Of a stretch of 64,000 bases of DNA, positions 24,148 to 38,065 are shown piece by piece. This stretch comes from Treponema sp. OMZ 798 (GTDB lineage Bacteria > Spirochaetota > Spirochaetia > Treponematales > Treponemataceae): contig NZ_CP051305.1 in the NCBI RefSeq assembly GCF_024181385.1, positions 682,001 to 746,000 of the forward strand. Reading direction: 5' to 3'. The translations under genes were made by a program, and so were the position numbers. Position 1 is the stretch's first letter. The number at the start of each line of letters is the position of its first letter. Below the pieces are notes generated by a model. The model was not told the origin of the DNA. It searched no databases and saw only the letters and a list, made by a program, of their open reading frames with translations.

Positions 24148-24294
24148 TAAACAGTTCGGCAGAAATTCCGCCTCACTGTTTATCTGTCGAGTTTTGTACT
24201 TTCAGTACAAAACATCGCATTATTTTATGTGTGCTTAAAGCACACACTTGAAAAAACTTTTTTCAGGATTTAATAATCCTTGCAAAAAGTTTTT
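24146..24294 (+). repeat. Four consecutive hairpins between the two ABC genes
   Basis: Four inverted repeats fill the 161-nt gap. (1) 24146-24155 with 24175-24184, 10 bp, starting inside the stop codon. (2) 24191-24200 with 24204-24213, 10 bp, loop 3 nt. (3) 24229-24236 with 24238-24245, 8 bp. (4) 24252-24262 with 24284-24294, 11 bp, enclosing an inner 5-bp stem. Only A/T-rich stems with no clean terminal T-run follow, so read-through is expected. They probably modulate mRNA stability or the relative dosage of the two subunits. Confidence 0.7.
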
Positions 24295-24308
24295 ATGAGA
24301 GGAAATTT

Positions 24309-26135
24309 ATGAAAAATAATTATCTATACCGTTCTTTTAAATTTACATTCGGGGTGAGTCCGGTTTCACATATTTTTGTTTTAATTGAAGAGATTTGGCA
24401 GGCCTTGTTTCATTCCATAGCGGCTTTTCTTTTAAGCGGTTTTATCGATACAGTCATAGCTTATTCTCAAAAACAAGTTGAGGTCAAAGTTCTTTATTTT
24501 TATGCTCTGAGTTTTGCTTCTCTTTACATCTTACAGGAATTATGGGCTCTTGTGTATAACGGTGCAATGAATATCGGAATATATGAAAAGCCGAATAATT
24601 ATGCCAATCTTTTGATTGCCGAAAAAGCTTCACGGTTGCGCTTAATCGAATTTGAAGATGCGAATATTTTAAACATGTATAAGTATGCCAAGGATAATAT
24701 CGAAAACGAATATGTTCCTTATCTTGTAATGCGTATGATTTATATTCTGTGCCGATTTATCGAAATAGCTTCTTTGACTTTTGTAATCACCAAATTCGAT
24801 TGGCGGCTTTTCCTTGTCGCAGCCGTTTCGGTTATTCCGTATTTTATTACCCGCCTTATTCGGGGAAAAGAAATGTATAAATATAAATCGATCCAAATTC
24901 CTGAAGAAAGAAAATTGGATTATCTTTGGTCTCTTTTTACCGATAAGAGTGCAGGGAAGGAATTGCGCATTTCAAGATCCGATGAGTATATAAAAGAAAA
25001 ATGGCTTAAAAAAAACAAGGAAGTTTTTGATCCCGTTTGGAAGTTAAAGAAAAAAGATGCTTTTTCCGTTTTGTTTTGCGACATGCTTTCTTCTATAGGA
25101 TACGGTATTGCAGTTTTTTTCTGCCTTTATCTTGCCTTAAATAGAATTATCAGTATCGGAATGCTCGGAGCTGCAATAGGGGCTTTTACTATGATTCAGT
25201 TTTGTATGCGGAATCTTTTGGAAGCCTTAGGTTCGATTTCAATGTACGCCGCCCACACAAAGCACTTTTTCGATTTTTTGGATTTGCCCGAAGATCTTCC
25301 TTTAAAAGAATCGGAAGCTGTGTCTAAGGAATCGCCCGCCGAATCTAAAAATTCGGCTTGCAGTTTAAAAAATTGTATCGAATTGAAAAACTGCATCGAG
25401 CTTAAAAATGTTTCTTTTTCATATCCGAACAACGATAAAAAAGCCCTTAACCGTATAAGTCTTTCCATCAAAAAGGGTGAAACGCTGGCTCTCATAGGCG
25501 AAAACGGTTCGGGAAAAACCACTCTTTCTAAAATTATTTTAGGGCTTTATGAGGCCGGTACAGGGGAAGTCCTATGGGACGGTACCAATATAAATTCGAT
25601 AGATAAGACTGCTCTTTATAAAAATATTTCTCTCACCCTTCAAAAACCCGTTCAATATAATTTTAGTTTAAGAGAAAACGTCGCAATTTCCGATTTGACC
25701 AGGATAAACGAAGATAAAAAAATTATAGAGACCCTAAAAGAAAACGATGCCGATTATCTTTTAGAAAAAACGGGAGGCCTTGACGGAAGACTTGGGCGTA
25801 TTTTTAAGGGCGCCGAACTTTCAGGCGGAGAATGGCAGCGCCTTGCTCTAAGCCGCTGCCGCTTTAGGGAGGCAGATTTTTTAATCCTTGATGAGCCGAC
25901 TTCAGCCCTTGATCCTATCGAAGAAAGCCTTGTGTTAAAGCGCTTTATAAGCCTTATAAAAAACAAAACCGCCGTAATCATTTCGCATAGGGCGGGTTTG
26001 TGCAGGCTTGTAGACAGGGTAGCTCTTATGAAGGAGGGGAGACTCCTAGCCCTCGGTACTCACGATGAGCTTTTTTCTTCTTGTGATGAATATAGAAGGC
26101 TTTATTCCGCTCAAGCCGATTTATACAGGGATTAA
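24309..26135 (+). CDS. ABC exporter half-transporter 2
   Basis: 608 residues. The N-terminal six-helix membrane domain spans residues 1-325; the ATPase spans about 360-605. Walker A is IGENGSGKTT, the Q-loop LTLQKP, the signature LSGGEWQRLALS, Walker B LILDEP, and the switch His is in ISHRAG. A linker before the ATPase contains a short repeat (LKNCIELKNCIELKN), an apparent small duplication. The ribosome site is AGAGGAAA. With the upstream gene it most likely forms a heterodimeric exporter; the substrate is unknown. Confidence 0.9.
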   Translation: MKNNYLYRSFKFTFGVSPVSHIFVLIEEIWQALFHSIAAFLLSGFIDTVIAYSQKQVEVKVLYFYALSFASLYILQELWALVYNGAMNIGIYEKPNNYANLLIAEKASRLRLIEFEDANILNMYKYAKDNIENEYVPYLVMRMIYILCRFIEIASLTFVITKFDWRLFLVAAVSVIPYFITRLIRGKEMYKYKSIQIPEERKLDYLWSLFTDKSAGKELRISRSDEYIKEKWLKKNKEVFDPVWKLKKKDAFSVLFCDMLSSIGYGIAVFFCLYLALNRIISIGMLGAAIGAFTMIQFCMRNLLEALGSISMYAAHTKHFFDFLDLPEDLPLKESEAVSKESPAESKNSACSLKNCIELKNCIELKNVSFSYPNNDKKALNRISLSIKKGETLALIGENGSGKTTLSKIILGLYEAGTGEVLWDGTNINSIDKTALYKNISLTLQKPVQYNFSLRENVAISDLTRINEDKKIIETLKENDADYLLEKTGGLDGRLGRIFKGAELSGGEWQRLALSRCRFREADFLILDEPTSALDPIEESLVLKRFISLIKNKTAVIISHRAGLCRLVDRVALMKEGRLLALGTHDELFSSCDEYRRLYSAQADLYRD

Positions 26136-26161: not shown

Positions 26162-26190
26162 TTGATTAAAATAAAAAAATAATGTATGTT
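26162..26190 (+). promoter_or_regulatory. Candidate feo operon promoter
   Basis: TTGATT (26162-26167), a 17-nt spacer and TATGTT (26185-26190), 32 nt before the first feoA start. I see no clear Fur-box palindrome. Confidence 0.4.
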
Positions 26191-26221
26191 CCTTGAAACA
26201 TTTTGTGAGAGGTCACTGACA

Positions 26222-26449
26222 TTGTTACCCTTAATTATTTTAAAGGAAGGCGATAAGGCCTCCGTGCTTAAATTTGACGGAACGGGGGCCGAATTTTCCC
26301 GTCTTCGCAGTCTTGGAATAGATATAAATACGGAAATAACCGTTGTTACTTCTCAGGCCGATAAAAAGGGGCCTATTTTGCTTTTGGTAAACGGTTCAAA
26401 ATATGCGGTAGATTATAATCTTGCTTCCAAAATATTGGTACGTTTATAG
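26222..26449 (+). CDS. feoA: FeoA-domain protein (first copy)
   Basis: 75 residues from a TTG start; GAGAGG lies 9 nt upstream. The SH3-like FeoA fold is recognised from LKEGDKASVLKFDGTG, a central LRSLGIDINTEITVV and a C-terminal LVNGSKYAVDYNLASKILV. FeoA binds FeoB's cytoplasmic part and promotes ferrous iron uptake. Two FeoA genes in tandem precede feoB here; the two may form a heteromer. The exact start is uncertain because no ATG is available after the ribosome site. Confidence 0.8.
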   Translation: MLPLIILKEGDKASVLKFDGTGAEFSRLRSLGIDINTEITVVTSQADKKGPILLLVNGSKYAVDYNLASKILVRL

Positions 26450-26470
26450 ATTAAGGTAAAGGAGGTTTAA

Positions 26471-26695
26471 ATGACTCTTGATGAATTGGAGCAGGGTAAA
26501 AAAGGAATTATCGAGGACCTTGAAATCAGCGGAATGACCCTGCAAAGGCTTATAAGCTTGGGCTTTACCCCCGGGGCTGAAGTTTCGGTTGTAAGAAAGG
26601 CTCCGCTTTTAGATCCTTTTGATATTTCAATCTGCGGTTCGCTTGTAGCAGTCCGTAAGGACGAAGCTAAAAAAATCATTGTAAAAGAAGTTTAG
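26471..26695 (+). CDS. feoA: FeoA-domain protein (second copy)
   Basis: 74 residues. FeoA/SH3-like pattern: MTLDELEQGKKGIIEDLEIS, then LQRLISLGFTPGAEVSVVRKAP and ISICGSLVAVRKDEAKKIIV, which is closer to classical FeoA than the first copy. The ribosome site AAAGGAGG is strong. It is 3 nt before feoB, so the two are coupled. The expected role is regulation or assembly of FeoB. Confidence 0.92.
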   Translation: MTLDELEQGKKGIIEDLEISGMTLQRLISLGFTPGAEVSVVRKAPLLDPFDISICGSLVAVRKDEAKKIIVKEV

Positions 26696-26698
26696 AAT

Positions 26699-29533
26699 AT
26701 GAAAAAAGAAAAAATAAATATTGCTTTTGCCGGTCAGCCTAACTCCGGCAAGTCAACCCTATTTAACATGATGACGGGAGCTCATCAGCATGTTGCAAAC
26801 TATCCGGGCATCACAGTAGAGAAAAAAACGGGAGAGTATTTTGCCCTTGATCAGTCGGTTTTTATTACCGACTTGCCGGGTACTTACAGCCTTACTTCTT
26901 ATTCGCCTGAAGAAAGGGTGACCCGCAATTTTATTCTGCGTGAAAAACCTGAGCTTTTAGTAAACATTGCCGATGCCTCAAATTTGGAAAGACATCTTTA
27001 TCTTACATTTCAGCTTTTGGAGATGAATTGCCCCATTGTTATGTATTTAAACAAGATGGACTCCGCAAAAAATGCAGGTCTTCAAATTGATGTAGACAAG
27101 GTTTCCTCCCTCTTAGGCATTTCTATAATTGCCGGTTCAGCCAAGAAAAAGGAAAAGGTAAACGAGTTAAAAGAACTTATTTCAAGAACGGCTGAGAGCT
27201 CTGAGCCTCAAAAGCCCTTTATGCTTACCTACGGTAAGGACATGGAATCCTATTTGGAAAAGATTGTCGAAAAATTAAGGGCCTCCGCAAAAGATGAGCT
27301 TTTTCCCATCCCCTTAAGATGGCTTGCAATCAAGCTTTGCGAAAAGGATGCTGCAGTTATCGAGGAAGAGGGTAAAAATTTTACAAACTTTGATTCCGTC
27401 TTAAATTTTATAAAAGAAATCGAAGCTGAGCACAAGGAAAAACATAAGCACAGCTTTGAAATCGAAATAGCCCTTGCCCGCTCGGCTGCAGCAAAGAAAA
27501 TTGTTGAAGCTGCGGTTTCAAAAAAAGAGCTTGAACAAAAAGCCGTCGAGACCTTAAATATTAAAAGAAAGGTTTCCGAGGCTGTTGCAGTCCTTATTCT
27601 TTGTTTTGTAACCTATGAGATTTTGGATTCGCTTTTTTTGCTTTTGCCGATTCCCATCTTTGCAAACAACATTCTCCGCTTTGTTCTTAGTCTGGCCGGA
27701 GCTCTTGCCTTTACGGGAGGAGCAGCTCTTATCTATACTAAGGGAGGGTCAGGCAGTATAAACTCGACCGACAGGATCGATAAGGTACTTTGTCACAAGG
27801 TTTACGGTCTTTTGATCTTGGTTGAGCTTGTTTTGGTCTTTTATTGGATAACCGTAGTTTTGGGTTATAAGATGACCGACAAGGTTTTCCCGATATTTAA
27901 ATTTGTGCGCACGGTAGTTTCTCAGCTTATTTATCCTGAAGGCCTTATAAACGAAGGTCCTTTGCGAGGTCTCTTTTTAAGCGGAATAATTGACGGTGCA
28001 ATAATGATTCTAAACTATGTACCCATATTTTTCTGCTTGTTTGCCTTAATAGCCTTTTTGGAAGATGTCGGATACATGGCTCGTCTTGCCTTTATCATGG
28101 ATAGGGTTTTACGCAAGTTCGGTTTACACGGGCAGTCAACCCTTCCTATGATTTTATCGGGTGTTATAATGGGGGGCTGCGTTGTTCCCGGTGTTATGTC
28201 CACAAGAACAATCAGGGATGATAAGTCTCGCTTGGTAACTATCCTAATCTTGCCTCTGCTTAACTGTATGGCAAAGATTCCCTTTTATGTTTTAATTACG
28301 GGAATATTTTTTACAAGCTATCAATGGATAGTGCTGGGCGGAATTTCATTCTTTACTTTGATTGTGGCCTTGATTGTTGCAAAATATTTCAGCCTCTATG
28401 TTGTTCACGGCAGGCCCGAACCCTTTGTTTTGGAGCTTCCGGCTTATAATATGCCGACTTTAAGAGGCGTTTTAATCCGCACCTTTGAACGCTTATGGAG
28501 TTTTATAAAAAAAGTTGCGACTACAGTAGTCGCCGTTTCGGTTATAATCTGGGCGGGTGTAAACTTTCCCTCTTTGAACACGGAAAAAACCGCTCAATAC
28601 GAAGCAAAAAAAGAAGCCTATATTCAGGACTTTGCAGGAAAACTAAATAATTCATATTCCCAATATTTTGCTTCCGAAAAAGGTTTTATAGAATTCCAGC
28701 GTTTAAACGAGAAGCTTTATCTATATGATGCCTTAAATTGGTTCGGCGGAGCTAAGGGGACGGAAAGGAATATAAACAGGCTTTTTTTACAAAATCCTGA
28801 AATGACAAAAATAGCCTTAAAAGGAAAAATCGATCTCGGCAGCAATATAGGTGCTTTTAAAAACTACCTTGACATGTATTCTGCCGCAAAAAAAGACTTT
28901 GATAAGGCCTATGAGGGTGCTCAAGAATTTCAAAAGCCTATTTTGAAGGCTTCGTTTTATGCTTACTGGCAAAAATTGAATCCTTACTTCTTTGCCCTTG
29001 TCAGAACCGGAAAGATAAAAATTTCAGGAACAGCTGTGGTCGATTCTGAGGCTGCCGCCGCAGCAAAGGCTATACGTCCTGCGAGTGCTGATTTAAAGCT
29101 GATCTCGGTTCAGCTGCGAAAAGAAACCTTGGAAAACTCTATTTTGGGCTACCTAGGAAAGGGTATGGAGCCTGTCACAAAATATGCAGGTTTTGACTGG
29201 AAGGTAAACATTGCTATTTTAGGTTCTTTCGCTGCAAAAGAAGCCCTTGTTTCGACCTTGGGCACTATTTACAGTGTGGAGTCTTCAAGCGAGGATTCGG
29301 GTAAGGTTTTGGAAGCCCGTATTCAAGATAAGGAGACGGGGTTAACCCCCTTAGACGGTCTTACCATTATGATTTTGATCGCCCTCTTCCCGCCCTGTAT
29401 TGCTACCGTTATGGCAACAAAGACCGAGACTCAAAGTGTAGGCTGGACCTTGTTCAGTGTTCTTTATCCTGTAGTGCTCAGTTCTCTGGTTGCCGTCCTT
29501 GTATTCCAGTTGGGAAGATTATTCGGCTTTTGA
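26699..29533 (+). CDS. feoB: Ferrous iron transporter FeoB with long extracytoplasmic insertion
   Basis: 944 residues, longer than the usual 700-800. The N-terminal G domain has GQPNSGKST (G1), DLPGTYSL (G3) and NKMD (G4). The membrane part has both Gate regions, including GGCVVPGVMSTRT and the later AAKEALVSTLGTIY. An insertion of about 185 residues (about 625-810, helical and Lys/Tyr-rich) lies between membrane helices and is not in E. coli FeoB. FeoB imports Fe2+ across the inner membrane. The gene is followed 35 nt later by genes for NikL- and NikK-like exported proteins, which suggests periplasmic metal delivery; that link is inferred. Confidence 0.94.
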   Translation: MKKEKINIAFAGQPNSGKSTLFNMMTGAHQHVANYPGITVEKKTGEYFALDQSVFITDLPGTYSLTSYSPEERVTRNFILREKPELLVNIADASNLERHLYLTFQLLEMNCPIVMYLNKMDSAKNAGLQIDVDKVSSLLGISIIAGSAKKKEKVNELKELISRTAESSEPQKPFMLTYGKDMESYLEKIVEKLRASAKDELFPIPLRWLAIKLCEKDAAVIEEEGKNFTNFDSVLNFIKEIEAEHKEKHKHSFEIEIALARSAAAKKIVEAAVSKKELEQKAVETLNIKRKVSEAVAVLILCFVTYEILDSLFLLLPIPIFANNILRFVLSLAGALAFTGGAALIYTKGGSGSINSTDRIDKVLCHKVYGLLILVELVLVFYWITVVLGYKMTDKVFPIFKFVRTVVSQLIYPEGLINEGPLRGLFLSGIIDGAIMILNYVPIFFCLFALIAFLEDVGYMARLAFIMDRVLRKFGLHGQSTLPMILSGVIMGGCVVPGVMSTRTIRDDKSRLVTILILPLLNCMAKIPFYVLITGIFFTSYQWIVLGGISFFTLIVALIVAKYFSLYVVHGRPEPFVLELPAYNMPTLRGVLIRTFERLWSFIKKVATTVVAVSVIIWAGVNFPSLNTEKTAQYEAKKEAYIQDFAGKLNNSYSQYFASEKGFIEFQRLNEKLYLYDALNWFGGAKGTERNINRLFLQNPEMTKIALKGKIDLGSNIGAFKNYLDMYSAAKKDFDKAYEGAQEFQKPILKASFYAYWQKLNPYFFALVRTGKIKISGTAVVDSEAAAAAKAIRPASADLKLISVQLRKETLENSILGYLGKGMEPVTKYAGFDWKVNIAILGSFAAKEALVSTLGTIYSVESSSEDSGKVLEARIQDKETGLTPLDGLTIMILIALFPPCIATVMATKTETQSVGWTLFSVLYPVVLSSLVAVLVFQLGRLFGF

Positions 29534-29568
29534 TGTTTTAAATTATAAATTTTAGAGGAGTTATATAA

Positions 29569-30108
29569 ATGAAAAAAATAAGCATTTTATTTGTTTTAAT
29601 GATGTGTTCTATGATGCTTTTTGCACATTCGCCCCTATTGACTGTTGAGGATAACGGCGACGGAACTATCTATGTTCAAGGCGGATTTTCAAACGGAGCT
29701 ACTGCTGCCGGTGTTAAGCTTTATCTTACGGATAAGGCTACGGGTCAAAAAATCTGGGAAGGAGAATTCCCCGATGTAGGCGAACTCAATCTGCCTATTC
29801 CGAGTGTTCCGTATACTGTAACATTTGATGCAGGTCCCGGTCATATTATTGTAAAGGAAGGACCTGAGCCCGCAGGCGGTTTCGGCAGTCAGGCTGCTGA
29901 TGCATCGGCAAGCGGAAACGAAGCTCCTGCAGAGGCTGCTCCGGCACAAAAACCTGTTGCTGCTGCCGGTTCCGTAGGATGGGTTCCCATGGATACCGTT
30001 TCGGCAATGCCCGCTGTCGGTCCCTCTTTTACGGCAATCTTGGCCCTTGTGCTTGCCGTGATAAATTCGGTACTGATTGTTATCCTGTTTAAAAAACAAA
30101 AAAGGTAG
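29569..30108 (+). CDS. NikL-like exported protein with C-terminal anchor (copy 1)
   Basis: 179 residues. The signal peptide ends MMLFA and the mature protein would begin HSPLLTVEDNGDGT, with His at the N-terminus. Residues about 20-105 form a small beta-sandwich with GGFSNGATAAG and FDAGPGH, the pattern of NikL/CbiL-type accessory proteins of nickel/cobalt transport. An Ala/Pro/Glu-rich linker leads to a C-terminal membrane helix (ILALVLAVINSVLIVILF) and a KKQKR tail. N-terminal His residues coordinate metal in related systems; here this is inferred. A paralogue without the anchor lies at 35.4 kb. Confidence 0.65.
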   Translation: MKKISILFVLMMCSMMLFAHSPLLTVEDNGDGTIYVQGGFSNGATAAGVKLYLTDKATGQKIWEGEFPDVGELNLPIPSVPYTVTFDAGPGHIIVKEGPEPAGGFGSQAADASASGNEAPAEAAPAQKPVAAAGSVGWVPMDTVSAMPAVGPSFTAILALVLAVINSVLIVILFKKQKR

Positions 30109-30117
30109 GTGTCAAAA

Positions 30118-31128
30118 GTGAAAAAATTATTTCTTTCCGTATTGCTATGCTGTACGGCTTTGAGCCTTTTTGCTCACTTTCAGATTATTTATACTCCGTC
30201 TTCCATAATAGAAGATTCAAATAATAAGGTTGATTTTATAATTTCTTTTACCCACCCATTTGAGTCTGGGCTTACAATGGATATAGGTAAGAATGAAGCC
30301 GGAGAAGTCAAGGGTTTAAAAGAATTTTATTCCGTTCATAAAGAAGCCAAGACCGATTTAATGTCCTTTTTAAAAAAAGGAGAATTTGAATCTTCGGAAA
30401 GCAAGGCCTTTGCGTATACCTTTGAATTTAATAAGGAAGCAGGTTTTAGAGGAGGCGGAGACTGGGTCTTGGTGGCCGTTCCTCATCCTTATTTTGAAGC
30501 CTCCGAAGACGGATATATCCAGCAGATAGCTAAGGTCTTTATCAACAAGGCCGGGCTTTCCACCGATTGGCAATCAAGGGTTGCCGAAGGTTATCCCGAG
30601 ATACTGCCTTTGGTAAAGCCTTATGAAATCTGGGAGGGCGGAGTGATTCGTGCCCTTGTTCTGGACTCCGAAGGAAATCCCGTGCCCTATGCTCAGGTTG
30701 AATTTGAAAATATGAACTATGATGTTGATATGGCAAACAAGAAATTTACCGGAGAACCCAAGCTGCAAAAATCCGGTGCCGGTATGATAATGGCCGATAA
30801 TACAGGCGTTTTCGAATTTATTCCTCCCTGTCCCGGATATTGGGGCTTTGCCGCCCTCGGTGTAGGTAAGGAAAAGGAATTCTCCGGCAAGGAACTTTCT
30901 CAGGATGCCGTTATCTGGTTTGAGGTTAGTAAGATTGAAGATGCTTCAGAAGAGGCTGTTATGCCTGTTGCCCAAGCTCCTGCTGCTGAAGCCGCAAAAC
31001 CTGAAAAAGCCGGTCCTAAGGATGGCTTTTCTCCTGCTGCCTTGATTATCGTAATTTTACTCTTTGTGGTTATGTTTGCGTGGCCTCCTATATTTAAAAA
31101 GATTTCGGATAAGGCCGAAAACAAGTAG
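30118..31128 (+). CDS. DUF4198 (NikK-like) exported protein with C-terminal anchor (copy 1)
   Basis: 336 residues from the GTG at 30118 (AGGTAGG about 8 nt upstream); a GTG three codons earlier is possible. The signal peptide ends LSLFA, then HFQIIYTPSS, again with a predicted N-terminal His. DUF4198 features include FRGGGDWVLVAVPHPYFE, a second beta domain after LVLDSEGNPVPYAQVEFEN, and GYWGFAALGVG. A C-terminal membrane helix (ALIIVILLFVVMFAW) anchors it. NikK/DUF4198 proteins accompany Ni/Co transporters as extracytoplasmic metal-binding parts. A close paralogue lacking the anchor follows the riboswitch. Confidence 0.75.
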   Translation: MKKLFLSVLLCCTALSLFAHFQIIYTPSSIIEDSNNKVDFIISFTHPFESGLTMDIGKNEAGEVKGLKEFYSVHKEAKTDLMSFLKKGEFESSESKAFAYTFEFNKEAGFRGGGDWVLVAVPHPYFEASEDGYIQQIAKVFINKAGLSTDWQSRVAEGYPEILPLVKPYEIWEGGVIRALVLDSEGNPVPYAQVEFENMNYDVDMANKKFTGEPKLQKSGAGMIMADNTGVFEFIPPCPGYWGFAALGVGKEKEFSGKELSQDAVIWFEVSKIEDASEEAVMPVAQAPAAEAAKPEKAGPKDGFSPAALIIVILLFVVMFAWPPIFKKISDKAENK

Positions 31129-31133
31129 ATAAT

Positions 31134-31170
31134 AAAAGCCGAGCCTCTTTGGGGGCTTGGCTTTTTTTTT
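31134..31170 (+). terminator. Terminator after the first half of the metal island
   Basis: A 10-bp stem (31136-31145 with 31154-31163, one G-U pair) is followed by nine T residues. It ends the feo-NikL-NikK transcript just before the cobalamin riboswitch. Confidence 0.85.
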
Positions 31171-31202
31171 AAAATGTTTATAATCATTATCGAGGTTATA
31201 GT

Positions 31203-31392
31203 CAAATAAGGTTCTTAAATAATTTTAAGATTAAAAGGGAAACAGGTGAAAAACCTGCACAGCCCCCGCTACTGTAATTGAGTTTGTTTATCATAATGCT
31301 TGTAATTTATTTATATGGTTAGAAGCATGAGCCACTGTTAATATGGGAAGGCGATAAACTTTAAATCATAAGTCAGGAGACCTGCCTATTTG
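31203..31392 (+). promoter_or_regulatory. Cobalamin (B12) riboswitch
   Basis: The core elements are present in order: GGGAAACAGGTG with its pairing partner CACCTGC-like region (about 31237-31259), GCCCCCGCTACTGTAA (from 31262), AGCCACTG (31330-31337), GGGAAGGCG (31345-31353), and AAGTCAGGAGACCTGCC (31370-31386). The closing stem pairs CAAATA..GG (31203-31211) with CCTATTTG (31385-31392). In known cases adenosylcobalamin binding turns down the downstream genes. The gene regulated here encodes a DUF4198 protein, pointing to cobalt or corrinoid acquisition. Confidence 0.93.
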
Positions 31393-31686
31393 TGTTACGA
31401 ATCCTTCGGAGGGAAGGAAAATCGGAAAACTAATTATTATATAGCTCTATCCATGTTTTTCGTTTTTTCTTTATTTATTCTCCGTGTATTTTTAATTAAG
31501 AGTTTCCTATAAATTTTTATTGGAGGGCTTGCTTTTTTTTAAGAAATAATATAGATTGTCAGCGATAATTTACATTTAAATTCGAAAAAAGATTTATCCG
31601 TGAGTTTTAAGGGGTGCCTTTTTACTCTATCTTTTTTTGAACTTAGATAATGAGTCTTTAGACTAGAATATGTATAGGAGTTTTAT
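31393..31686 (+). other. Leader between riboswitch and the second DUF4198 gene
   Basis: 294 bases, T-rich. A candidate expression platform is a stem CGGAAAAC (31423-31430) with GTTTTTCG (31455-31462), one G-U pair, followed by a T-rich run (31463-31474). It could act as a riboswitch-controlled terminator. A second T-run occurs near 31532-31540. An AGGAG ribosome site lies about 7 nt before the ATG at 31687. Confidence 0.4.
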
Positions 31687-32508
31687 ATGAAAAAAATTAC
31701 AGGAATAGTTTTACTTTTATTCTTTGTAGCTATGGCTTCATTTGCTCACTTTCAAATGATTTATACCCCGACTTCAATCGTTGAAGGCAACTCTGTTGAT
31801 TTTAAGATTGTTTTTACCCATCCTGCCGATGCAGGTCACACAATGGACATCGGTAAAAACGAGGCCGGTGAAATTAAAGGTTTTGAAAAATTCTTTTCGG
31901 TTCACAAGGAAAAGGTACAGGATTTGCTTCCCTCTTTAAAGAAAACAAAATTTGCTGCTTTAGAAAGTGAGGCTTCTGCTTATGACCTTACCTTGAGCAA
32001 GGATAACGGTTTTAGAGGAGGCGGAGACTGGGCTCTTATCGCTGTTCCCCATCCTTATTATGAAGGAGGATCTGAAGATATTTATATTCAGCAGGTTACT
32101 AAGGTATTTATAAATAAGGCCGGACTTGATACCGACTGGAGTGCAAGATGTGCCGAAGGTTATCCCGAAATAATGCCCTTGGTAAAACCATATGATGTTT
32201 GGGTAGGCGGCATTTTTAGAGGTACTGTTTTAGATTCAAAGGGTAAGCCCGTACCTAATGCAGAAATTGAAGTTGAATACATTAACTTTGATGTAAACAT
32301 GAAAAAGAGCAAATTTGAAAAGAAGGCAAAAACAAAGAATGCTGCTGCAGTAATTTTGGCTGATGCAAATGGAAACTTTTCCTTTGTTCCTCACAAGGCC
32401 GGATACTGGGGCTTTGCAGCTCTTGGTGCAGGTAATACAAAAGAATTTGCAGGTAAAGAACTTTCACAGGACGCTGTACTCTGGATTGAGGCAATGCCGG
32501 TAAAATAA
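31687..32508 (+). CDS. DUF4198 (NikK-like) periplasmic protein (copy 2, riboswitch-controlled)
   Basis: 273 residues. The signal peptide ends AMASFA, then HFQMIYTPTS, so His is again the predicted first mature residue. It closely parallels the copy at 30.1 kb (shared MDIGKNEAGE, FRGGGDWALIAVPHPYYE, AEGYPEIMPLVKPYDVW, GYWGFAALGAG, GKELSQDAVLWIE). It lacks the C-terminal membrane helix and so should be soluble in the periplasm. It is the first gene after the cobalamin riboswitch. Cobalt binding is the simplest inference; nickel, iron or zinc cannot be excluded. Confidence 0.78.
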   Translation: MKKITGIVLLLFFVAMASFAHFQMIYTPTSIVEGNSVDFKIVFTHPADAGHTMDIGKNEAGEIKGFEKFFSVHKEKVQDLLPSLKKTKFAALESEASAYDLTLSKDNGFRGGGDWALIAVPHPYYEGGSEDIYIQQVTKVFINKAGLDTDWSARCAEGYPEIMPLVKPYDVWVGGIFRGTVLDSKGKPVPNAEIEVEYINFDVNMKKSKFEKKAKTKNAAAVILADANGNFSFVPHKAGYWGFAALGAGNTKEFAGKELSQDAVLWIEAMPVK

Positions 32509-32519
32509 GGAATGTCCTT

Positions 32520-32702
32520 ATGACATTAGGAATGGTCTTGACTATTTCCATAGTTGCAGGCGTTATCATCTTACTCATCCGTAAATATTACAGGATATTT
32601 AAGGGTAAGGCTTCGGCCTGCAACTGCGGAGAAAAAAACATCAATCCTAAGAGCGGCTGCGGTTGCGGATGCTGTGGCTGTTCTATGGAAGAAAAAAAGT
32701 AG
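32520..32702 (+). CDS. FeoB-associated Cys-rich membrane peptide
   Basis: 60 residues: one membrane helix (residues about 6-20, VLTISIVAGVIILLIR), a basic stretch, then a Cys-rich tail (ACNCGEKN and GCGCGCCGCSMEEKK). This is the pattern of the FeoB-associated Cys-rich family, normally found next to feoB. Here it is separated from feoB by about 3 kb and lies within the riboswitch unit, 11 nt after the DUF4198 gene. The cysteines probably bind metal at the cytoplasmic side. Confidence 0.75.
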   Translation: MTLGMVLTISIVAGVIILLIRKYYRIFKGKASACNCGEKNINPKSGCGCGCCGCSMEEKK

Positions 32703-32782
32703 ACTAACTTGCTTTAATTCGGGGTTCTCTCGAATTAAATGTTAGATATATTTAACTTATTAACTTAAAGGAGTTTTATTTT

Positions 32783-33994
32783 ATGGTTAATAAAAGAATG
32801 GGTGCAAAGATTGCACTTATATTGGTTACACTTGCAGTTTTATTTACTGCATGTAAGTCTATGCCTGCTGTAGTGGAAGTAAGTCCCGATAAATTGGTAG
32901 CAGGACAAGAACTTGCAGCTTGGAAAGGTAAATGGGTTTCTACTTATACGGTAATGAATGATGAGTCATTGAATGCAGCCTATAAGAAGACTGCTGAAGG
33001 AATGCCTTATTATACTGAAGGCGGTTTGAAGGCTGCCGTCAAAGATATGTATGGAAGTTCTGTAACCGCTATGAAATTTAACGGTACCAATAAGGTTACT
33101 CTTACAATGCAGAAGAAAGACGGTAGTAAATCCAATGTAGTATGTGAATACAAATACATGGGTACGAAGGCTGTTCCCGGTTATGAGGGTTCACTTTGGT
33201 ATACGTTTGAAGCGGTAAACCCAGGAAAAGAATTGCAGGCTGTAAAAAATATGATTATTATGCCTCCTCATCAACACGGAGATGGTCCTCTTCATTGGCA
33301 TGTTCGTTTCGGCTACTACGGTTTTGATTGGCTTATAAACGGAGAAAAATCATGGCCTACCTTTGTTCCGGCCTCAACAAAAAAGAACGATATGTTAAAG
33401 GGTGCAGAATCTTCAATTGAAACTATGCCTAAATGGACGGATGCAGCTCCCTTTAAGTCTTATGCAGAACACGGAAGGTGGATCAATAGTCTCCTTGTTT
33501 TTGAAAATTCAAGCAAAGAGGTTATGGATGTCTATGCTAAGCTCATCAAAGAGTTTGAAGGAAAAAATCCTAAGGGCGGAGACTTTACCAGAGCAGAAAT
33601 TATTGCAGAATTGCAAAAAAGCGATGACAGTTTAAAAGATTTTACTCATCTTGAGTTTAATATAAAAGACGGAAAAAATGAGCTTATAGTTTTTAAAGGT
33701 TCGAAAGAAATCTTCAGATCAAACTATGTAAGAGTTGCGCCCGGCAAGGCAAAGGCTTATATGACAATGAAAGCCGAAAAGAAAGATGCCGGAATGTTCT
33801 CTCTTATATCCTTTGTAGTTGTTCATGGTGCTCCTAATTATCACTTCCATTTGTGGTACGGAGCAACCGAAGAGGATATTGCTGCTCAGAGAGGTACTCC
33901 TACCTGTTACAAGGTAGATGTTCCTGCCGATATCCGAGCTAGCGGTATTGAAAGATCCGCAAAAAGAACTCTTTCAGCATTAACCGGAAAATAG
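32783..33994 (+). CDS. Lipoprotein with two ZinT-like metal-binding domains (copy 1)
   Basis: 403 residues. The lipobox is VLFTAC. Domain 1 (about 40-210) matches ZinT: LAAWKGKWVSTY, CEYKYMG, a His cluster PPHQHGDGPLHWHVRFG, and SWPTFVP. Domain 2 (about 220-400) repeats the theme: FTHLEFNIKDGKNELIVF and VVHGAPNYHFHLWYGA. E. coli ZinT uses a His plus a following HxH to bind Zn/Cd; both domains here keep that arrangement. The ribosome site AAAGGAG is strong. The protein is a likely outer-membrane or periplasmic metal chaperone. It has a near-copy directly downstream. The metal could be cobalt given the upstream riboswitch. Confidence 0.8.
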   Translation: MVNKRMGAKIALILVTLAVLFTACKSMPAVVEVSPDKLVAGQELAAWKGKWVSTYTVMNDESLNAAYKKTAEGMPYYTEGGLKAAVKDMYGSSVTAMKFNGTNKVTLTMQKKDGSKSNVVCEYKYMGTKAVPGYEGSLWYTFEAVNPGKELQAVKNMIIMPPHQHGDGPLHWHVRFGYYGFDWLINGEKSWPTFVPASTKKNDMLKGAESSIETMPKWTDAAPFKSYAEHGRWINSLLVFENSSKEVMDVYAKLIKEFEGKNPKGGDFTRAEIIAELQKSDDSLKDFTHLEFNIKDGKNELIVFKGSKEIFRSNYVRVAPGKAKAYMTMKAEKKDAGMFSLISFVVVHGAPNYHFHLWYGATEEDIAAQRGTPTCYKVDVPADIRASGIERSAKRTLSALTGK

Positions 33995-34017
33995 TTCTGT
34001 TATTAAAAATGAAATTG

Positions 34018-34046
34018 CTGCCGATTGTTTAAATATAAATCGGCAG
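34018..34046 (+). terminator. Hairpin between the two ZinT-like genes
   Basis: A 9-bp perfect stem (CTGCCGATT at 34018-34026 with 34038-34046) without a strong T-run, so probably an attenuator or processing site within the operon. Confidence 0.5.
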
Positions 34047-34080
34047 CATTTAGTCATAATTTTATTTTAAGGAGATGTTT

Positions 34081-35304
34081 ATGTCTAATAAAAAAATCGG
34101 TGCAAAAATTGCACTTATTTTGATTGCTGTTGCGGTAGCATTTACTGCATGTAAGTCCATGCCTGAAGCCGTTAAGTCGGCTAAGGCTGAAGTTGAAAAA
34201 CTTATTCCCGGAAAGGAGCTTGCTGCCTGGAAAGGTGAATGGGTTTCGGTGGATGTTGTAAAAAATGATCCTTCTTTGAAAGAATTATACAAAGAAGCTG
34301 CATCAAAGAATTCAAATTATACCCAAGAGGGTATCAAAGATGCTATTGAAGGAAGAAGAAAGACGCCTTTTGCAAGGGTAAAATTTGACGGGACTAATAA
34401 GATAAGTTTTACCGTTATTGATGCAGACGGAAAACAAAAAGAGATCGTTGCCGAATATAAATATCTAGGCAAGGTTCCTATGCCCGGTTATGAAGGTTCT
34501 TTTTGGGAAACATTTGAGGCTGTAAAAAATGTACGCGGACTTACTATGGCCAAGTATATGATCTGTACTCATCCTCATAGCCATGACGGAGGACAGGTTC
34601 ACTGGCATGTAAGATTCGGCGAAACGAATATTGATACCCTTGTAAAAAAAGCCGATCCTTCTTATTGGCCTACCTATGTTGACGGTTCGACAAGCAATGA
34701 AAAACTTTTGGAAAATTTTAAAAAATCGATAGAAAATAGTGCTGCAAAACTTCCTGCACCCTTTGCCGTTTATGCTAAAGAAGGAAAATGGATGAACAGC
34801 TCCTTAATTTACGATAATACAAGTGCTGAAGTTAATGCTGCTTACGACAAAATCATCAAAGAATTTGCCGGAAAAAATCCTAAGGGCGGAGACTTTACAA
34901 AGGCCGAAATCATTGCCGAAATGAAAAAAGCATACGGAACAACAGAGCTTTATACTCACATCGAATTTGTTACCGAGAATGGAAAGAACGAATTTGTAAT
35001 GTATAAGGACGGAAAAGAAATTTACAGGGCAGCTTATAAGAGAACTGCCGAAAATGCCGCCAAACCCGGATCGCTTGCCGTTAAAACAGACAAAAAAGAT
35101 GCAGGAATGTTTAAAACGATTTCTCTTACGAGTGCAGGAGGAAGCCCTGCGCATTTCCACTTCTGGTATGGTATGACAGATGCCGATTTTGCTAAAATTA
35201 AAGAAAAACCGACTTGCATACCTGCAAATTCATCAAACGAAATGATTGCAAAGCGCGTTGAAGGTTCTTGCCGCAAAATTTTAAGCGGACTCATACAAAA
35301 ATAA
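34081..35304 (+). CDS. Lipoprotein with two ZinT-like domains (copy 2)
   Basis: 407 residues from the ATG at 34081 (AAGGAG 6 nt upstream); an ATG two codons earlier abuts the ribosome site. The lipobox VAFTAC is followed by the same KSMP as copy 1, and the opening segments are nearly identical, showing a recent tandem duplication. Domain 1 has HPHSHDGGQVHWHVRFG. Domain 2 has SPAHFHFWYG but lacks the first His seen in copy 1, so its site may be weaker or altered. A stem-loop follows the gene. Confidence 0.8.
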   Translation: MSNKKIGAKIALILIAVAVAFTACKSMPEAVKSAKAEVEKLIPGKELAAWKGEWVSVDVVKNDPSLKELYKEAASKNSNYTQEGIKDAIEGRRKTPFARVKFDGTNKISFTVIDADGKQKEIVAEYKYLGKVPMPGYEGSFWETFEAVKNVRGLTMAKYMICTHPHSHDGGQVHWHVRFGETNIDTLVKKADPSYWPTYVDGSTSNEKLLENFKKSIENSAAKLPAPFAVYAKEGKWMNSSLIYDNTSAEVNAAYDKIIKEFAGKNPKGGDFTKAEIIAEMKKAYGTTELYTHIEFVTENGKNEFVMYKDGKEIYRAAYKRTAENAAKPGSLAVKTDKKDAGMFKTISLTSAGGSPAHFHFWYGMTDADFAKIKEKPTCIPANSSNEMIAKRVEGSCRKILSGLIQK

Positions 35305-35311
35305 ATGGATA

Positions 35312-35342
35312 TTCCTCTAAGGTCTGATTGACTTTAGAGGAA
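35312..35342 (+). terminator. Hairpin after the second ZinT-like gene
   Basis: A 9-bp stem (TTCCTCTAA at 35312-35320 with 35334-35342), followed by a weak T-rich stretch (CTTATTTG). It may partly separate the last NikL-like gene from the operon. Confidence 0.5.
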
Positions 35343-35386
35343 CTTATTTGATATTATAATAAAAAATTTTAATAGGAGAAGGAAAG

Positions 35387-35725
35387 ATGAAAAAAAGAAC
35401 AGCTATTTTTATTTGTTTTTTAGTATTGGGAGCAGCTCTTTTGTTTGCTCATGCCCCGAGGTTGCTTTGCTATGACAATGGCGACGGAACCTTTACCTGT
35501 GAAGGCGGTTTTTCTGACGGCTCACCCGCTGCAGGTACCGAAATACGCATTGAAAACCCCAAGGAAAAGGATCCCAAAAAAAAGGTTATTCTTAAGACCA
35601 AGCTTGACAAAAACAATGAGGTTATCATTAAATATGCCGACATCAAGGTAAAAGACTTTGTGATTATCTTTGATGCAGGCCCCGGCCATATTGTAAAAGT
35701 AAAATCAAGCGATATCGAAAAATAA
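35387..35725 (+). CDS. NikL-like periplasmic protein (copy 2)
   Basis: 112 residues. The signal peptide ends ALLFA, then HAPRLLCYDNGDGT: a predicted N-terminal His and the same DNGDGT, GGFSDGSPAAG and FDAGPGHIVK elements as the protein at 29.6 kb. It has no C-terminal linker or membrane helix, so it should be soluble. It mirrors the anchored/soluble pairing seen for the DUF4198 proteins. An AGGAGAAGG ribosome site precedes the ATG. The metal is unknown. Confidence 0.65.
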   Translation: MKKRTAIFICFLVLGAALLFAHAPRLLCYDNGDGTFTCEGGFSDGSPAAGTEIRIENPKEKDPKKKVILKTKLDKNNEVIIKYADIKVKDFVIIFDAGPGHIVKVKSSDIEK

Positions 35726-35746: not shown

Positions 35747-35782
35747 AAAAAGGGACTTTGTTTTACACTGTCCCTTTTTTTT
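35747..35782. terminator. Terminator shared by the metal island and sufU
   Basis: A 10-bp stem (AAAAAGGGAC at 35747-35756 with GTCCCTTTTT from 35770) followed by a T-run on the plus strand and A-rich sequence on the other. It overlaps the last codons of sufU. Confidence 0.85.
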
Positions 35783-36206
35783 CGTTTAAAAGAACATCGG
35801 CTGAGTGCCAGCTTAAAGTTGCACATTTTATGCGGGCAGGCATTTGGGCAAAGTATTCCAAGATTTGAGCATCTTCCAGTTCTTCCTTTTCTTCTTCAGA
35901 AACTTCTTTCCCGTTCATCATCTTAAAAAATATTTCTACCTTGCGTTTGCCTTCTTCGGCTTTTTTTCCTTTTATAAGTTCGATGAGCATATTTGTAGAA
36001 GCCGTAGAAATTGCACAGCCCCTTCCTAAAAAAGAAGCCTCTTCGATGATTCCGTCTTTTTCCCTGATGAGGAGGGTAAGGTCATCACCGCATGAGGGGT
36101 TATGACCTCTTTCTATCTTTACGCCTTCTCCCGAAAGTTCCCGGCAGTTTTCTTTTTTTCGGGAATATTCCAAAATCATTTCCTGATAAATTGTATCTAT
36201 ATCCAT
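35763..36206 (-). CDS. sufU: Iron-sulfur scaffold / sulfur-acceptor protein SufU
   Basis: 147 residues of the IscU/SufU family. The three metal-ligand cysteines appear in NPSCGDD, GRGCAIS and RIKCATLSWH; the Asp after the first Cys is also kept. The insertion between the second and third Cys marks the SufU subtype, which takes sulfur from SufS using bound zinc. It lies 26 nt downstream of sufS on the same strand, as in many Firmicutes-type SUF systems. The other suf genes (sufBCD) are not in the window. Confidence 0.92.
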   Translation of the reverse strand: MDIDTIYQEMILEYSRKKENCRELSGEGVKIERGHNPSCGDDLTLLIREKDGIIEEASFLGRGCAISTASTNMLIELIKGKKAEEGKRKVEIFFKMMNGKEVSEEEKEELEDAQILEYFAQMPARIKCATLSWHSADVLLNEKKGTV

Positions 36207-36232
36207 TTATGTTTCCTTATCAATATTCTTTT

Positions 36233-37435
36233 TTAATCCTTTAAAAAAACGCTTTTTACTTTTTTTAAGGCCGTAATCATAACATCGATGTCTTCTTTTG
36301 TGTTAAAAATAGAAAAACTTGCACGGCAGCAGGAGTTTATGTTTAAGTGAGCCATTAGGGGCTGAGTACAATGATGTCCGCTTCTTACCATGACTCCGTA
36401 CTCGTTTAAGATATAGGAAGTGTCGTGCGAGTGTACATCTTTTACATTAAAGGCGATTATGCCTGCCCGCTCCGGAGCATCGGTTCCGTAGGTTTCAACA
36501 AAATCGAGTTTTTTTAATTCTGAAAGAGCATAATCGTCCAATTCTTTTACGGTTTTTTCTATATTGGCATAGCCGATTTTTTCTATATATTCTATTGCGT
36601 GTTTAAGAGAAACTATGGCGGAAGTGTCATGGGTGCCGCCCTCGTATTTATAAGGGGCTTCCTTAAACTCGCTTGAATCTTCCGTAACAAAATTGATCAT
36701 ATCTCCGCCGTATAAAAAAGGCGGCATCTTGTCTAATAGCTCTTTTTTCCCGTAAAGCACTCCGGCTCCGAAGTCGGAAAAAATCTTATGGCCCGAAAAA
36801 ACCAAAAAATCGCAGTCAAGGGCCGATACGTTCTGCCTGTAGTGAGCTATCGATTGGGCTGCATCGACTACAACAACGGCTCCGTTTTCATGGGCGAGTT
36901 TTATAACTTCTTCTACAGGGTTTATAATTCCTGTTGCATTTACCACGCTTGAAAGGGCAACAACCTTCGTTTTAGCCGAAAGTTTTGCTTTAAAGTCATT
37001 CATGTCCAAAGTGCCGTTTTTATTTAGGTAGATAAATTTTAGGGCTGCCCCCGTTTGTTTTGCAACAAACTGCCAAGGTACAAGATTTGCGTGATGGTTT
37101 GATACAGCCAATAGAATTTCATCTCCGCTTTTAAGCTGCGATAAGCCGTAGCAATAGGCGATGATGTTTAAAGCCTCTGTAGAATTTTTTGTAAATACAA
37201 TGCTTTCTATTTTATCTGCCCCGATAAATTCGGCCGTTTTTTTTCTTGTTTCTTCAACCAAAATGGAAGAAGCTATTGCAAGGGAATGAGAGCCCCGCCC
37301 CGCATTTCCGTTTGAGTGTAAAAAATATTCTTTAACGCCTTCTATAACTTGTAAAGGCCTTTGTGCCGTTGCCGCCGAATCCAAATAATGAATGTTAGGA
37401 TTTTGCATAAGCAAAGGAAAATCGCTTTTATACAT
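36233..37435 (-). CDS. sufS: Cysteine desulfurase SufS
   Basis: 400 residues of the class V PLP aminotransferase fold. The PLP lysine is in SGHKIFSDFGAG, the active-site cysteine in RSGHHCTQPLM, and the N-terminal NIHYLDSAATAQRP matches group II (SufS/CsdA) desulfurases. It removes sulfur from cysteine and hands it to SufU for iron-sulfur cluster assembly. AAGGAG lies 11 nt before the ATG. It is convergent with the metal-uptake island, so iron import and cluster assembly are neighbours. Confidence 0.94.
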   Translation of the reverse strand: MYKSDFPLLMQNPNIHYLDSAATAQRPLQVIEGVKEYFLHSNGNAGRGSHSLAIASSILVEETRKKTAEFIGADKIESIVFTKNSTEALNIIAYCYGLSQLKSGDEILLAVSNHHANLVPWQFVAKQTGAALKFIYLNKNGTLDMNDFKAKLSAKTKVVALSSVVNATGIINPVEEVIKLAHENGAVVVVDAAQSIAHYRQNVSALDCDFLVFSGHKIFSDFGAGVLYGKKELLDKMPPFLYGGDMINFVTEDSSEFKEAPYKYEGGTHDTSAIVSLKHAIEYIEKIGYANIEKTVKELDDYALSELKKLDFVETYGTDAPERAGIIAFNVKDVHSHDTSYILNEYGVMVRSGHHCTQPLMAHLNINSCCRASFSIFNTKEDIDVMITALKKVKSVFLKD

Positions 37436-37944: not shown

Positions 37945-37962
37945 TTCCACATTCCTAATTAA

Positions 37963-37982
37963 GCATTCCTAATTAGGAATGC
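37963..37982. repeat. Perfect 20-bp palindrome
   Basis: GCATTCCTAATTAGGAATGC, preceded by a direct repeat of ATTCCTAATT at 37951-37960. It may be a terminator stem for the orphan antitoxin or a protein-binding site. Confidence 0.6.
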
Positions 37983-38036
37983 CCAATTATAAACCGCAAA
38001 AATAAAAAAGCTATTAACCAAAAATAAAAAAACAGC

Positions 38037-38065
38037 TTGACATATAATCAAAAAATGATTATAAT
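38037..38065 (+). promoter_or_regulatory. Toxin-antitoxin promoter with embedded operator
   Basis: Perfect TTGACA (38037-38042), a 17-nt spacer and perfect TATAAT (38060-38065). The inverted repeat TATAATCA (38043-38050) / TGATTATA (38056-38063) fills the spacer and enters the -10 box, a good autorepression operator. The toxin ATG is only 6 nt beyond the -10 box. Confidence 0.8.

What the first reader, a model, noticed from the sequence alone, without database searches (positions are those of the whole stretch)
26222..35725. Metal island built from mirrored gene pairs around a cobalamin riboswitch
The order is feoA-feoA-feoB, NikL-like 1, NikK-like 1, terminator, cobalamin riboswitch, NikK-like 2, Cys-rich peptide, ZinT-like 1, ZinT-like 2, NikL-like 2. 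The NikL and NikK families each appear twice, once with a C-terminal membrane anchor (first half) and once without (second half). This suggests one iron-linked, membrane-tethered set and one cobalamin-repressed, soluble set. I know of no described system with this composition; no NikMNQO/CbiMNQO core is in the window.
Basis: partly seen in the sequence, partly recalled or inferred. Interest (0 to 1): 0.85.

Follow-up and report, generated by a model that had tools for sequence, protein, structure and literature searches.

The report
B12-switched metal-capture island in Treponema
In an oral spirochete close to Treponema denticola, the genes for two surface proteins long called hemin-binding proteins sit in a metal-handling gene island whose second half is led by a vitamin B12 sensor RNA, which points to cobalt or a similar metal rather than hemin as their cargo and makes that idea testable.

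Summary
In detail: feoA-feoA-feoB, NikL1, DUF4198-1 (NikK-like), terminator, RF00174 cobalamin riboswitch, DUF4198-2, Cys-rich membrane peptide, two ZinT-like lipoproteins, NikL2. By position and homologue names the ZinT-like genes are T. denticola HbpA/HbpB, published as hemin-binding. The ZinT-like proteins are tandem duplications of the ZinT fold. DUF4198-2 models onto a Ni-bound DUF4198 structure and onto Zcp (Co, Zn, Cu forms), its mature N-terminal His at the metal site. The riboswitch sits before DUF4198-2 in 5 of 8 DUF4198-bearing genomes (145 searched); two relatives keep the whole run without it, with no B12 synthesis. T. putidum keeps only the riboswitch-led half and has no FeoB. 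CbiM lies 69-73 kb from the island in 3 of 4 full-island riboswitch genomes. Published data: TDE_2054-2059 change together, and TDE2055, 2056 and 2058 co-precipitate with the porin MOSP; matching these to the island rests on gene order. Best reading: a B12-repressed divalent-metal (probably cobalt) capture relay evolved from an iron-linked operon. B12 control and the metal are inferred. Nothing seen in ten literature searches reports this riboswitch; the 2003 B12-element survey could not be read.

The parts
26186..26449 (+). feoA-1 (FeoA domain)
   Evidence: PF04023 56.6 bits
26471..26695 (+). feoA-2 (FeoA domain)
   Evidence: PF04023 76.9 bits
26699..29533 (+). feoB, Fe(II) transporter, 944 aa
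   Evidence: TIGR00437 474.5 bits, above cut-off
29569..30108 (+). NikL1: signal peptide, His directly after the likely cleavage site (LFA|HSPLL, judged by eye), C-terminal membrane anchor
   Evidence: NF058648 E 6.3e-11, below cut-off; alignment
30109..31128 (+). DUF4198-1 (NikK-like), likely mature N-terminal His, C-terminal membrane anchor
   Evidence: PF10670 125.5 bits; alignment A2
31134..31165 (+). intrinsic terminator ending the feo unit
   Evidence: 14-pair stem plus T-run
31157..31184 (+). candidate promoter of the riboswitch unit; TATAAT at 31179-31184
   Evidence: as a class, promoter-like hits are no more than chance: 36 found, 30.2 expected; TTTATAAT kept in 6 of 6 aligned leaders, the window's included
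31192..31403 (+). cobalamin riboswitch aptamer
   Evidence: RF00174 99.2 bits, E 1.4e-23; same place in 5 related genomes
31402..31475 (+). candidate expression platform: hairpin TCCTTC-GGAGG-GAAGGA from 31402, then CGGAAAAC (31423) pairing with GTTTTTCG (31455) and a U-run (candidate regulated terminator)
   Evidence: motifs kept in the 6 aligned leaders; folds; positions; inferred, the pairs hardly vary so there is no covariation support
31687..32508 (+). DUF4198-2 (NikK-like), no anchor; likely mature N-terminal His21, with His45, Met53, His73 invariant
   Evidence: PF10670 139.9 bits; 30 of 30 aligned; AF2 pLDDT 91.8; PDB 9gcb, 9mhn etc.; TDE2058 in T. denticola by order
32520..32702 (+). 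Cys-rich small membrane protein, perhaps a divergent FeoB-associated Cys-rich membrane protein
   Evidence: PF12669 listed for 5 of 5 orthologues tested, best E 0.0014, window copy E 9.8, all below cut-off
32783..33994 (+). ZinT-like lipoprotein 1 = HbpA-type (tandem ZinT, two tri-His motifs H163/H171/H173 and H348/H354/H356)
   Evidence: PF09223; AF2 pLDDT 88.8 and PDB ZinT/AdcA; N/C halves hhalign 96.6%; names of homologues
34075..35304 (+). ZinT-like lipoprotein 2 = HbpB-type (tandem ZinT by alignment; first His of the C-motif replaced by Gly)
   Evidence: PF09223; alignment A1
35312..35342 (+). terminator-like hairpin after HbpB
   Evidence: 13-pair stem
35387..35725 (+). NikL2: His after the likely cleavage site (LFA|HAPRL, judged by eye), no anchor
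   Evidence: NF058648 E 5.9e-8, below cut-off; alignment

Best explanation
The island is an envelope divalent-metal acquisition operon (feoA-feoA-feoB, NikL, DUF4198, DUF4198, Cys-rich peptide, one or two tandem-ZinT lipoproteins, NikL). In the denticola/putidum lineage it is split by a terminator, a promoter and a cobalamin riboswitch. The second half works as a B12-repressed capture-and-relay unit. When cobalamin is plentiful the riboswitch stops transcription (or translation) of DUF4198-2 to NikL2. When it is scarce, lipoproteins HbpA and HbpB take up M2+ at the outer membrane next to the porin MOSP through ZinT-type tri-His sites. Soluble DUF4198-2 and NikL2 then carry the ion across the periplasm on N-terminal-His sites to an inner-membrane carrier: CbiM-Q-O-NikL elsewhere in the genome, or FeoB. 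The relatives of the window make their own corrin, so cobalt is the cargo that best explains the B12 control. Shown here: anatomy, predicted folds, conservation, split, genome-wide context of relatives. Shown by others: metal binding of DUF4198 relatives, and (with gene identity inferred from order) co-variation of the operon and co-precipitation with MOSP. Inferred: repression by B12, cobalt as cargo, the order of transfer, and which carrier is used.
Against: G035 and T. lecithinolyticum keep the whole protein set with feo but have no CbiC, CbiM or cobalamin riboswitch, so the proteins are not cobalt-specific by descent; these two do have one plug-domain protein each. G058 has CbiC and CbiM but no riboswitch at the island, and no CbiQ or CbiO beside its CbiM. 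T. putidum's CbiM is interrupted, so the CbiM link is not kept there, and its ZinT start region looks frame-shifted. The Cys peptide, if related to PF12669, points to FeoB. hbpA/hbpB transcripts of 1.3 and 2.6 kb, induced by low iron, are reported (Xu 2001, recalled, not read), which suggests promoters inside the unit and iron control. The trtA effect on the unit is strong and unexplained; other oral bacteria shift TDE2054-2056 both up and down. MOSP co-precipitation lists are long and may hold bystanders. The expression platform is only a candidate.
Confidence: 0.5

Rival explanations
1. The island serves iron(II) and/or zinc throughout. FeoB is the inner-membrane carrier for both halves, and the riboswitch only adds a metabolic input, raising Fe/Zn capture when B12-dependent metabolism fails.
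For: feo genes head the island in 7 of the 8 genomes with DUF4198 (all but T. putidum). The same set exists without CbiC or any cobalamin riboswitch in G035 and T. lecithinolyticum. The Cys peptide weakly resembles the FeoB-associated family. SufU/SufS lie next door. DUF4198 genes respond in zur and Fur-linked Caulobacter data (PMC4176598, PMC11870441, passages). hbp transcripts are low-iron induced (Xu 2001, recalled).
Against: In T. putidum the riboswitch-led half persists with no FeoB. In G044 an insert of about 1.5 kb separates feoB from NikL1. A cobalamin riboswitch is not known to me to control iron or zinc uptake as such (recalled).
Confidence: 0.3
2. HbpA and HbpB are tetrapyrrole binders. 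Their ligand under B12 control is a corrinoid (B12 or precursor), and hemin binding reflects that chemistry; DUF4198-2 and NikL2 are accessory.
Against: Both halves keep ZinT tri-His motifs, 14 of 22 (N) and 18 of 22 (C) complete, with the last two His of the C-motif in 22 of 22. The DUF4198 partner belongs to a metal-ion-binding family. PMC5643300 judged heme uptake improbable.
Confidence: 0.12
3. The riboswitch is real but mostly silent for the downstream genes: hbpA/hbpB and NikL2 are driven by internal promoters and other regulators (TrtA, iron).
For: 1.3 and 2.6 kb hbp transcripts (recalled). A terminator-like hairpin follows HbpB. Loss of TrtA lowers the unit 9- to 30-fold.
Against: Six neighbouring genes, including a probable leader ORF (TDE_2059), change together. 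The riboswitch and leader motifs are conserved in 6 of 6 leaders, and the riboswitch stays with DUF4198-2 in T. putidum, which lacks the first half.
Confidence: 0.1

Closest known systems
NikKMLQO / CbiMNQO ECF transporters (Rodionov 2006, recalled; Zhang 2009, PMC2667541)
   Same: NikK (DUF4198) and NikL pair; in five proteobacteria NikKMLQO operons are next to B12 biosynthesis genes or preceded by B12 riboswitches
   Different: No M or Q gene in the island or the window; K and L are duplicated; feo and tandem-ZinT lipoproteins are added
T. denticola HbpA/HbpB hemin-binding lipoproteins (TDE2056/2055)
   Same: Same position and gene order in G051 (taken as ATCC 35405 from its length, recalled), same family by homologue names
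   Different: Shown here as tandem ZinT domains led by a cobalamin riboswitch with DUF4198 and NikL partners; cargo probably a metal ion
ZinT (YodA) and the AdcA C-terminal domain
   Different: Two ZinT domains in one lipoprotein; different gene neighbours
DUF4198 metalloproteins: IsDUF4198 (PDB 9gcb) and the related Zcp (9mhi-9mhn)
   Same: Fold and, for 9gcb, the N-terminal His
   Different: Cobalamin-riboswitch control; anchored and soluble copies side by side
FeoA-FeoB with FeoB-associated Cys-rich membrane protein
   Same: feoAAB heads the island; small TM plus Cys-rich tail peptide
   Different: PF12669 score below cut-off; the peptide is encoded in the riboswitch-led half, not next to feoB

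Membership tests
Cobalamin riboswitch (RF00174) | Aptamer sequence and structure above gathering score | tested here: met
   99.2 bits against 31.5, whole model 1-189
Cobalamin riboswitch (RF00174) | Expression platform linking aptamer to gene control | tested here: inconclusive
   Conserved hairpin and U-run 3' of the aptamer in 6 leaders, but nearly invariant so no covariation
Cobalamin riboswitch (RF00174) | Binds cobalamin and lowers expression | not testable with these tools
   Needs bench work
NikKMLQO ECF transporter | K and L components | tested here: inconclusive
   K: PF10670 well above cut-off; L: NF058648 E 6e-11 and 6e-8 but 42.6 and 32.9 bits against a cut-off of 100
NikKMLQO ECF transporter | M, Q and O genes in the same locus | tested here: not met
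   No CbiM or CbiQ in the window; CbiO only generic ABC hits. CbiM is 69-73 kb from the island in 3 of 4 full-island riboswitch genomes and 0.9 Mb in the fourth; the order CbiQ-O-M-NikL was checked in G034 and G017
ZinT (PF09223) | ZinT domain | tested here: met
   58.7 and 52.8 bits against 27; PDB ZinT/AdcA, E 4e-9 to 2e-8 for ZinT-1
ZinT (PF09223) | Tri-His metal site (ligands recalled) | tested here: met
   H163/H171/H173 in ZinT-1; all three kept in 14 of 22 aligned
HbpA/HbpB of T. denticola | Orthologous genes in the same order | tested here: met
   G051 order and strand; TDE2055/2056 names; G051 taken as ATCC 35405 and TDE numbers assigned by order
HbpA/HbpB of T. denticola | Hemin binding | not testable with these tools
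   Published for the T. denticola proteins (recalled), not for this strain
DUF4198 N-terminal-His metalloproteins | His as first residue after the signal peptide, at the metal site | tested here: met
   H21 in 30 of 30 aligned, after Ala (27), Ser (2) or Gly (1); aligned range to 9gcb starts at model 21 and chain 1. Cleavage site judged by eye, no signal-peptide predictor was run
FeoB-associated Cys-rich membrane protein (PF12669) | Model above cut-off | tested here: inconclusive
   Best E 0.0014, 19.3 bits against 27; window copy E 9.8
Feo system | FeoA and FeoB | tested here: met
   PF04023 twice; TIGR00437 above cut-off

The most novel reading that the evidence does not exclude
A TonB-independent, B12-repressed outer-membrane cobalt (or corrinoid) acquisition route: porin-associated tandem-ZinT lipoproteins hand the ion to soluble N-terminal-His chaperones, built by planting a cobalamin riboswitch in the middle of an iron-uptake operon. 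The classic T. denticola hemin-binding proteins would then be cobalt-capture proteins.
Probability: 0.3. Interest if true: 0.8.

Novelty: new variant of a known kind. Interest (0 to 1): 0.6.

Why it matters
Two surface proteins of a periodontal spirochete have been filed as hemin-binding since 2001 (recalled), and a 2017 paper doubted it. A cobalamin riboswitch in front of them gives a direct reason to test cobalt or corrinoids. It also addresses how treponemes without TonB receptors move scarce metals across the outer membrane, what orphan NikK/NikL proteins do (left open in the 2009 survey, PMC2667541), and how a riboswitch can rewire part of an existing operon.

Tried and rejected
Considered and rejected or left open: (1) That the island riboswitch is a recent copy of the gdhA, btu or nik riboswitch of the same genomes: mean aptamer identities between groups are 56-61% against 88-96% within groups, so no recent copy. 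(2) That the ZinT-like proteins are single-domain: the N/C halves align at hhalign probability 96.6% (E 5.7e-10) against at most 0.46% in 20 column shuffles. (3) That the Cys-rich peptide is a soluble metallothionein-like peptide: a membrane helix and a PF12669-like order fit better, but all scores are below cut-off. (4) That one inner-membrane carrier is kept in all riboswitch genomes: FeoB is missing in T. putidum, its CbiM is interrupted, the riboswitch-led Nik-like solute-binding protein is full-length in only 3 of 9, and the riboswitch-led BtuC orthologue in 4 of 9. No single partner fits all, which counts against a fixed K-M-L-Q-O complex. (5) Foldseek rows below the nine ZinT/AdcA entries for the Hbp model have TM-scores by query length of 0.19 or less in the rows shown and were taken as noise.

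Led nowhere: search of the window's own genome (none held); the genome-contig scan with one protein found no relative, the alignment scan found three loci; NCBIfam gave nothing usable for the Cys peptides; the paper search with NikK and DUF4198 was swamped by words beginning with 'nikk'; PMC8167434, opened for hbp, does not mention it. In the 145-genome survey the 145 were drawn from a larger family; 10 of the 23 genomes with an A1 match have only weak single-ZinT-domain matches and were not counted as tandem ZinT; 7 of the 15 genomes with a DUF4198 match are below the family cut-off and were not counted. A1 used 20 of 46 homologues plus two window proteins; A2 used 28 of 120 listed homologues (1767 in all) plus two window proteins. 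Of the papers, PMC12724145 section 7, PMC12537917 section 6 and the first part of PMC5643300 section 9 were read; PMC3914990, PMC2667541, PMC2628430, PMC7160235, PMC11870441, PMC4176598, PMC12077055, PMC3931704, PMC4947327 and PMC8167434 were seen as passages; the rest as listings. No supplementary file was seen.


Full report
WHERE IT IS. The window is from a Treponema close to T. denticola. Treponema-type TD-1 and TD-2 RNAs are present, ZinT-1 is 99% identical to a protein named T. denticola (P0001), and the island proteins are 89-100% identical to genome G034. No whole genome is held for the window itself, so genome-wide statements come from relatives.

OBSERVATION. The riboswitch scores 99.2 bits against a gathering score of 31.5. 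NikL1 and DUF4198-1 end in a membrane segment; NikL2 and DUF4198-2 do not. The label 'soluble set' fails for the ZinT-like proteins (lipobox Cys in 22 of 22 aligned; SpII in PMC5643300) and for the Cys peptide, which has a membrane helix.

RELATIVES. In 145 Treponemataceae genomes drawn from a larger family, DUF4198 above cut-off occurs in 8, and all 8 have the tandem ZinT beside it. Full-length tandem ZinT occurs in 13 of 145, so 5 have it without DUF4198; 10 more have weak single-domain matches. A cobalamin riboswitch of any kind occurs in 66 of 145, 64 above cut-off. The order feoA-feoA-feoB-NikL1-DUF4198-1-riboswitch-DUF4198-2-Cys-ZinT-ZinT-NikL2 is in G017, G034, G044 and G051. G044 is not intact: its NikL1 reads in two frames, and about 1.5 kb with transposase-like frames (label recalled) lies between feoB and NikL1. 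G035 and T. lecithinolyticum (L003; one ZinT) have the same run with no riboswitch and short gaps between the two DUF4198 genes (for L003). G058 has the run with one ZinT, without riboswitch and with only a remnant of DUF4198-1. T. putidum (L001) has riboswitch, DUF4198-2, one ZinT whose signal-peptide region looks frame-shifted, a TD-1 RNA and NikL2, but no match to the Cys peptide there, followed by the same SufU/SufS genes as the window. Its only DUF4198 is DUF4198-2 and it has no FeoB (best match E 3e-4). One gain of the riboswitch in the denticola/putidum line is simpler than several losses; this assumes a species order that I recall, not one computed. The DUF4198-1 copies of G035 and the denticola group form one clade (support 1.00), so that duplication is older than their split; the two T. 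lecithinolyticum copies group together (0.87), so its history may differ.

GENOME CONTEXT. Over 9 genomes scored in full, cobalamin riboswitches are in 6 (18 sites). They precede gdhA (6 of 6), the island (5 of 6), a BtuF-C-D-like operon (4 of 6: G017, G044, G051, G058) and a Nik/Opp-like ABC operon (3 of 6: G001, G017, G044); the genes were named by family search in G017 and matched by their protein starts in the others. G034, closest to the window, has only gdhA and the island. CbiC and CbiM occur in the same 6 and not in G035, T. lecithinolyticum or T. vincentii; CbiC is in two frames in G044, and CbiM in T. putidum is interrupted by 1180 bases with a 388-codon open stretch. In G034 and G017 CbiM sits in a CbiQ-CbiO-CbiM-NikL locus without DUF4198 and without riboswitch; in G058 CbiM and NikL stand without CbiQ and CbiO nearby. 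By coordinates CbiM is 73, 69 and 70 kb from the island in G034, G017 and G051, but some 0.9 Mb away in G044. The window has no CbiM, CbiQ, NikA-like, BtuC-like or GdhA gene. No TonB-receptor plug domain was found in 7 of 9 genomes, including G001, G017, G034, G044, G051 and G058; G035 and T. lecithinolyticum have one each.

LEADER. Six leaders (the window and five genomes) share the TATAAT box just before the aptamer, the aptamer, a hairpin TCCTTC-GGAGG-GAAGGA (one base differs in T. putidum) and a CGGAAAAC/GTTTTTCG stem followed by U-rich sequence. This looks like a regulated terminator; the start codon is 219-324 nt from the aptamer, which suits termination better than blocking of the ribosome site. 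The stem hardly varies, so there is no covariation proof, and in one of the six (G044) the lowest-energy fold of the region is a different one.

PUBLISHED DATA THAT BEAR ON IT. Loss of the regulator TrtA lowers TDE_2054-2059 by log2 -3.22 to -4.90, six neighbours together; no gene just above 2059 is in the printed table, which shows 29 of 153 lowered genes (PMC12724145, section 7 read). TDE2054-2056 have values of +2.43 to +2.98 with P. intermedia and -1.86 to -2.85 with red-complex species (PMC3914990, passages). TDE2055 and TDE2056 are among 49 candidate partners of outer-membrane MOSP, TDE2058 among 20 of periplasmic MOSP (PMC5643300, first part of section 9 read); the authors doubted heme uptake and proposed zinc. 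NikK/NikL: B12-linked NikKMLQO in five proteobacteria, and orphan NikK/NikL of unknown role (PMC2667541, passages; its main text does not name Treponema). Ten paper searches gave no title, abstract or passage that I saw reporting this riboswitch before hbp; not every listed paper was opened. Xu 2001 (low-iron-induced 1.3 and 2.6 kb hbp transcripts, hemin binding) and Rodionov 2003 (B12-element survey) are recalled and were not read.

READING. The protein set is probably older than the riboswitch link and was iron-linked. In the corrin-making denticola group its second half came under a cobalamin riboswitch, which makes cobalt the most likely cargo there. The strongest facts against are the riboswitch-free relatives without B12 synthesis, G058 without the riboswitch, the lack of one constant inner-membrane partner, and reported iron control. 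I give 0.5 to the cobalt relay, 0.3 to iron/zinc with B12 as side input, 0.12 to corrinoid binding and 0.1 to a mostly silent riboswitch; these overlap a little.

Noticed in passing
L043 2881-4617 (G017), also L046, L048, L050, L052, L054: A cobalamin riboswitch precedes glutamate dehydrogenase (309-314 nt before the start) in 6 of 6 riboswitch-bearing genomes of the nine checked. T. denticola also has B12-dependent methylaspartate mutase (TDE2236 in PMC3914990; B12 dependence recalled), so B12 may choose between two glutamate routes.
   Followed up: partly
L042, L045, L053: A Nik/Opp-like ABC transporter operon led by a cobalamin riboswitch occurs in G001, G017 and G044 of the nine genomes; candidate cobalt importer.
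   Followed up: partly
L044, L047, L049, L051: A BtuF-C-D-like operon with a cobalamin riboswitch, followed in three of the four by an NhaC-like antiporter gene.
   Followed up: partly
window 24142-24300 and 40194-40290; L001 11392-11519: TD-1 and TD-2 RNAs overlap on opposite strands upstream of feo, and in T. putidum a TD-1 sits inside the island between ZinT and NikL2.
   Followed up: no
window 35763-37435 (-): SufU and SufS iron-sulfur genes converge on the island; the same two genes follow NikL2 in T. putidum.
   Followed up: partly
window 37657-38335: HI1420-type antidote gene, with further small ORFs on both sides; looks like a toxin-antitoxin locus.
   Followed up: no
window about 31150-31170 and 31522-31545; same in L036, L039, L040: A GGGGGCTTGCTTTTTTTT-type string occurs both just before the aptamer and again about 350-400 nt downstream in the leaders of G017, G044 and G051, with a diverged version in the window; possible trace of how the riboswitch segment entered.
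   Followed up: no
window 22318-26135: Two tandem ABC exporter genes of MsbA/type I class directly upstream of feo; matched next to feo in G017 and G044 but not in the stretch read of G034 or G051.
   Followed up: no
L069 5380-7153 (T. putidum); G044:C1:2411354-2411939; L039 9690-11162: CbiM interrupted by 1180 bases with a long open stretch in T. putidum; CbiC over two frames in G044; transposase-like frames (label recalled) between feoB and NikL1 in G044.
   Followed up: partly
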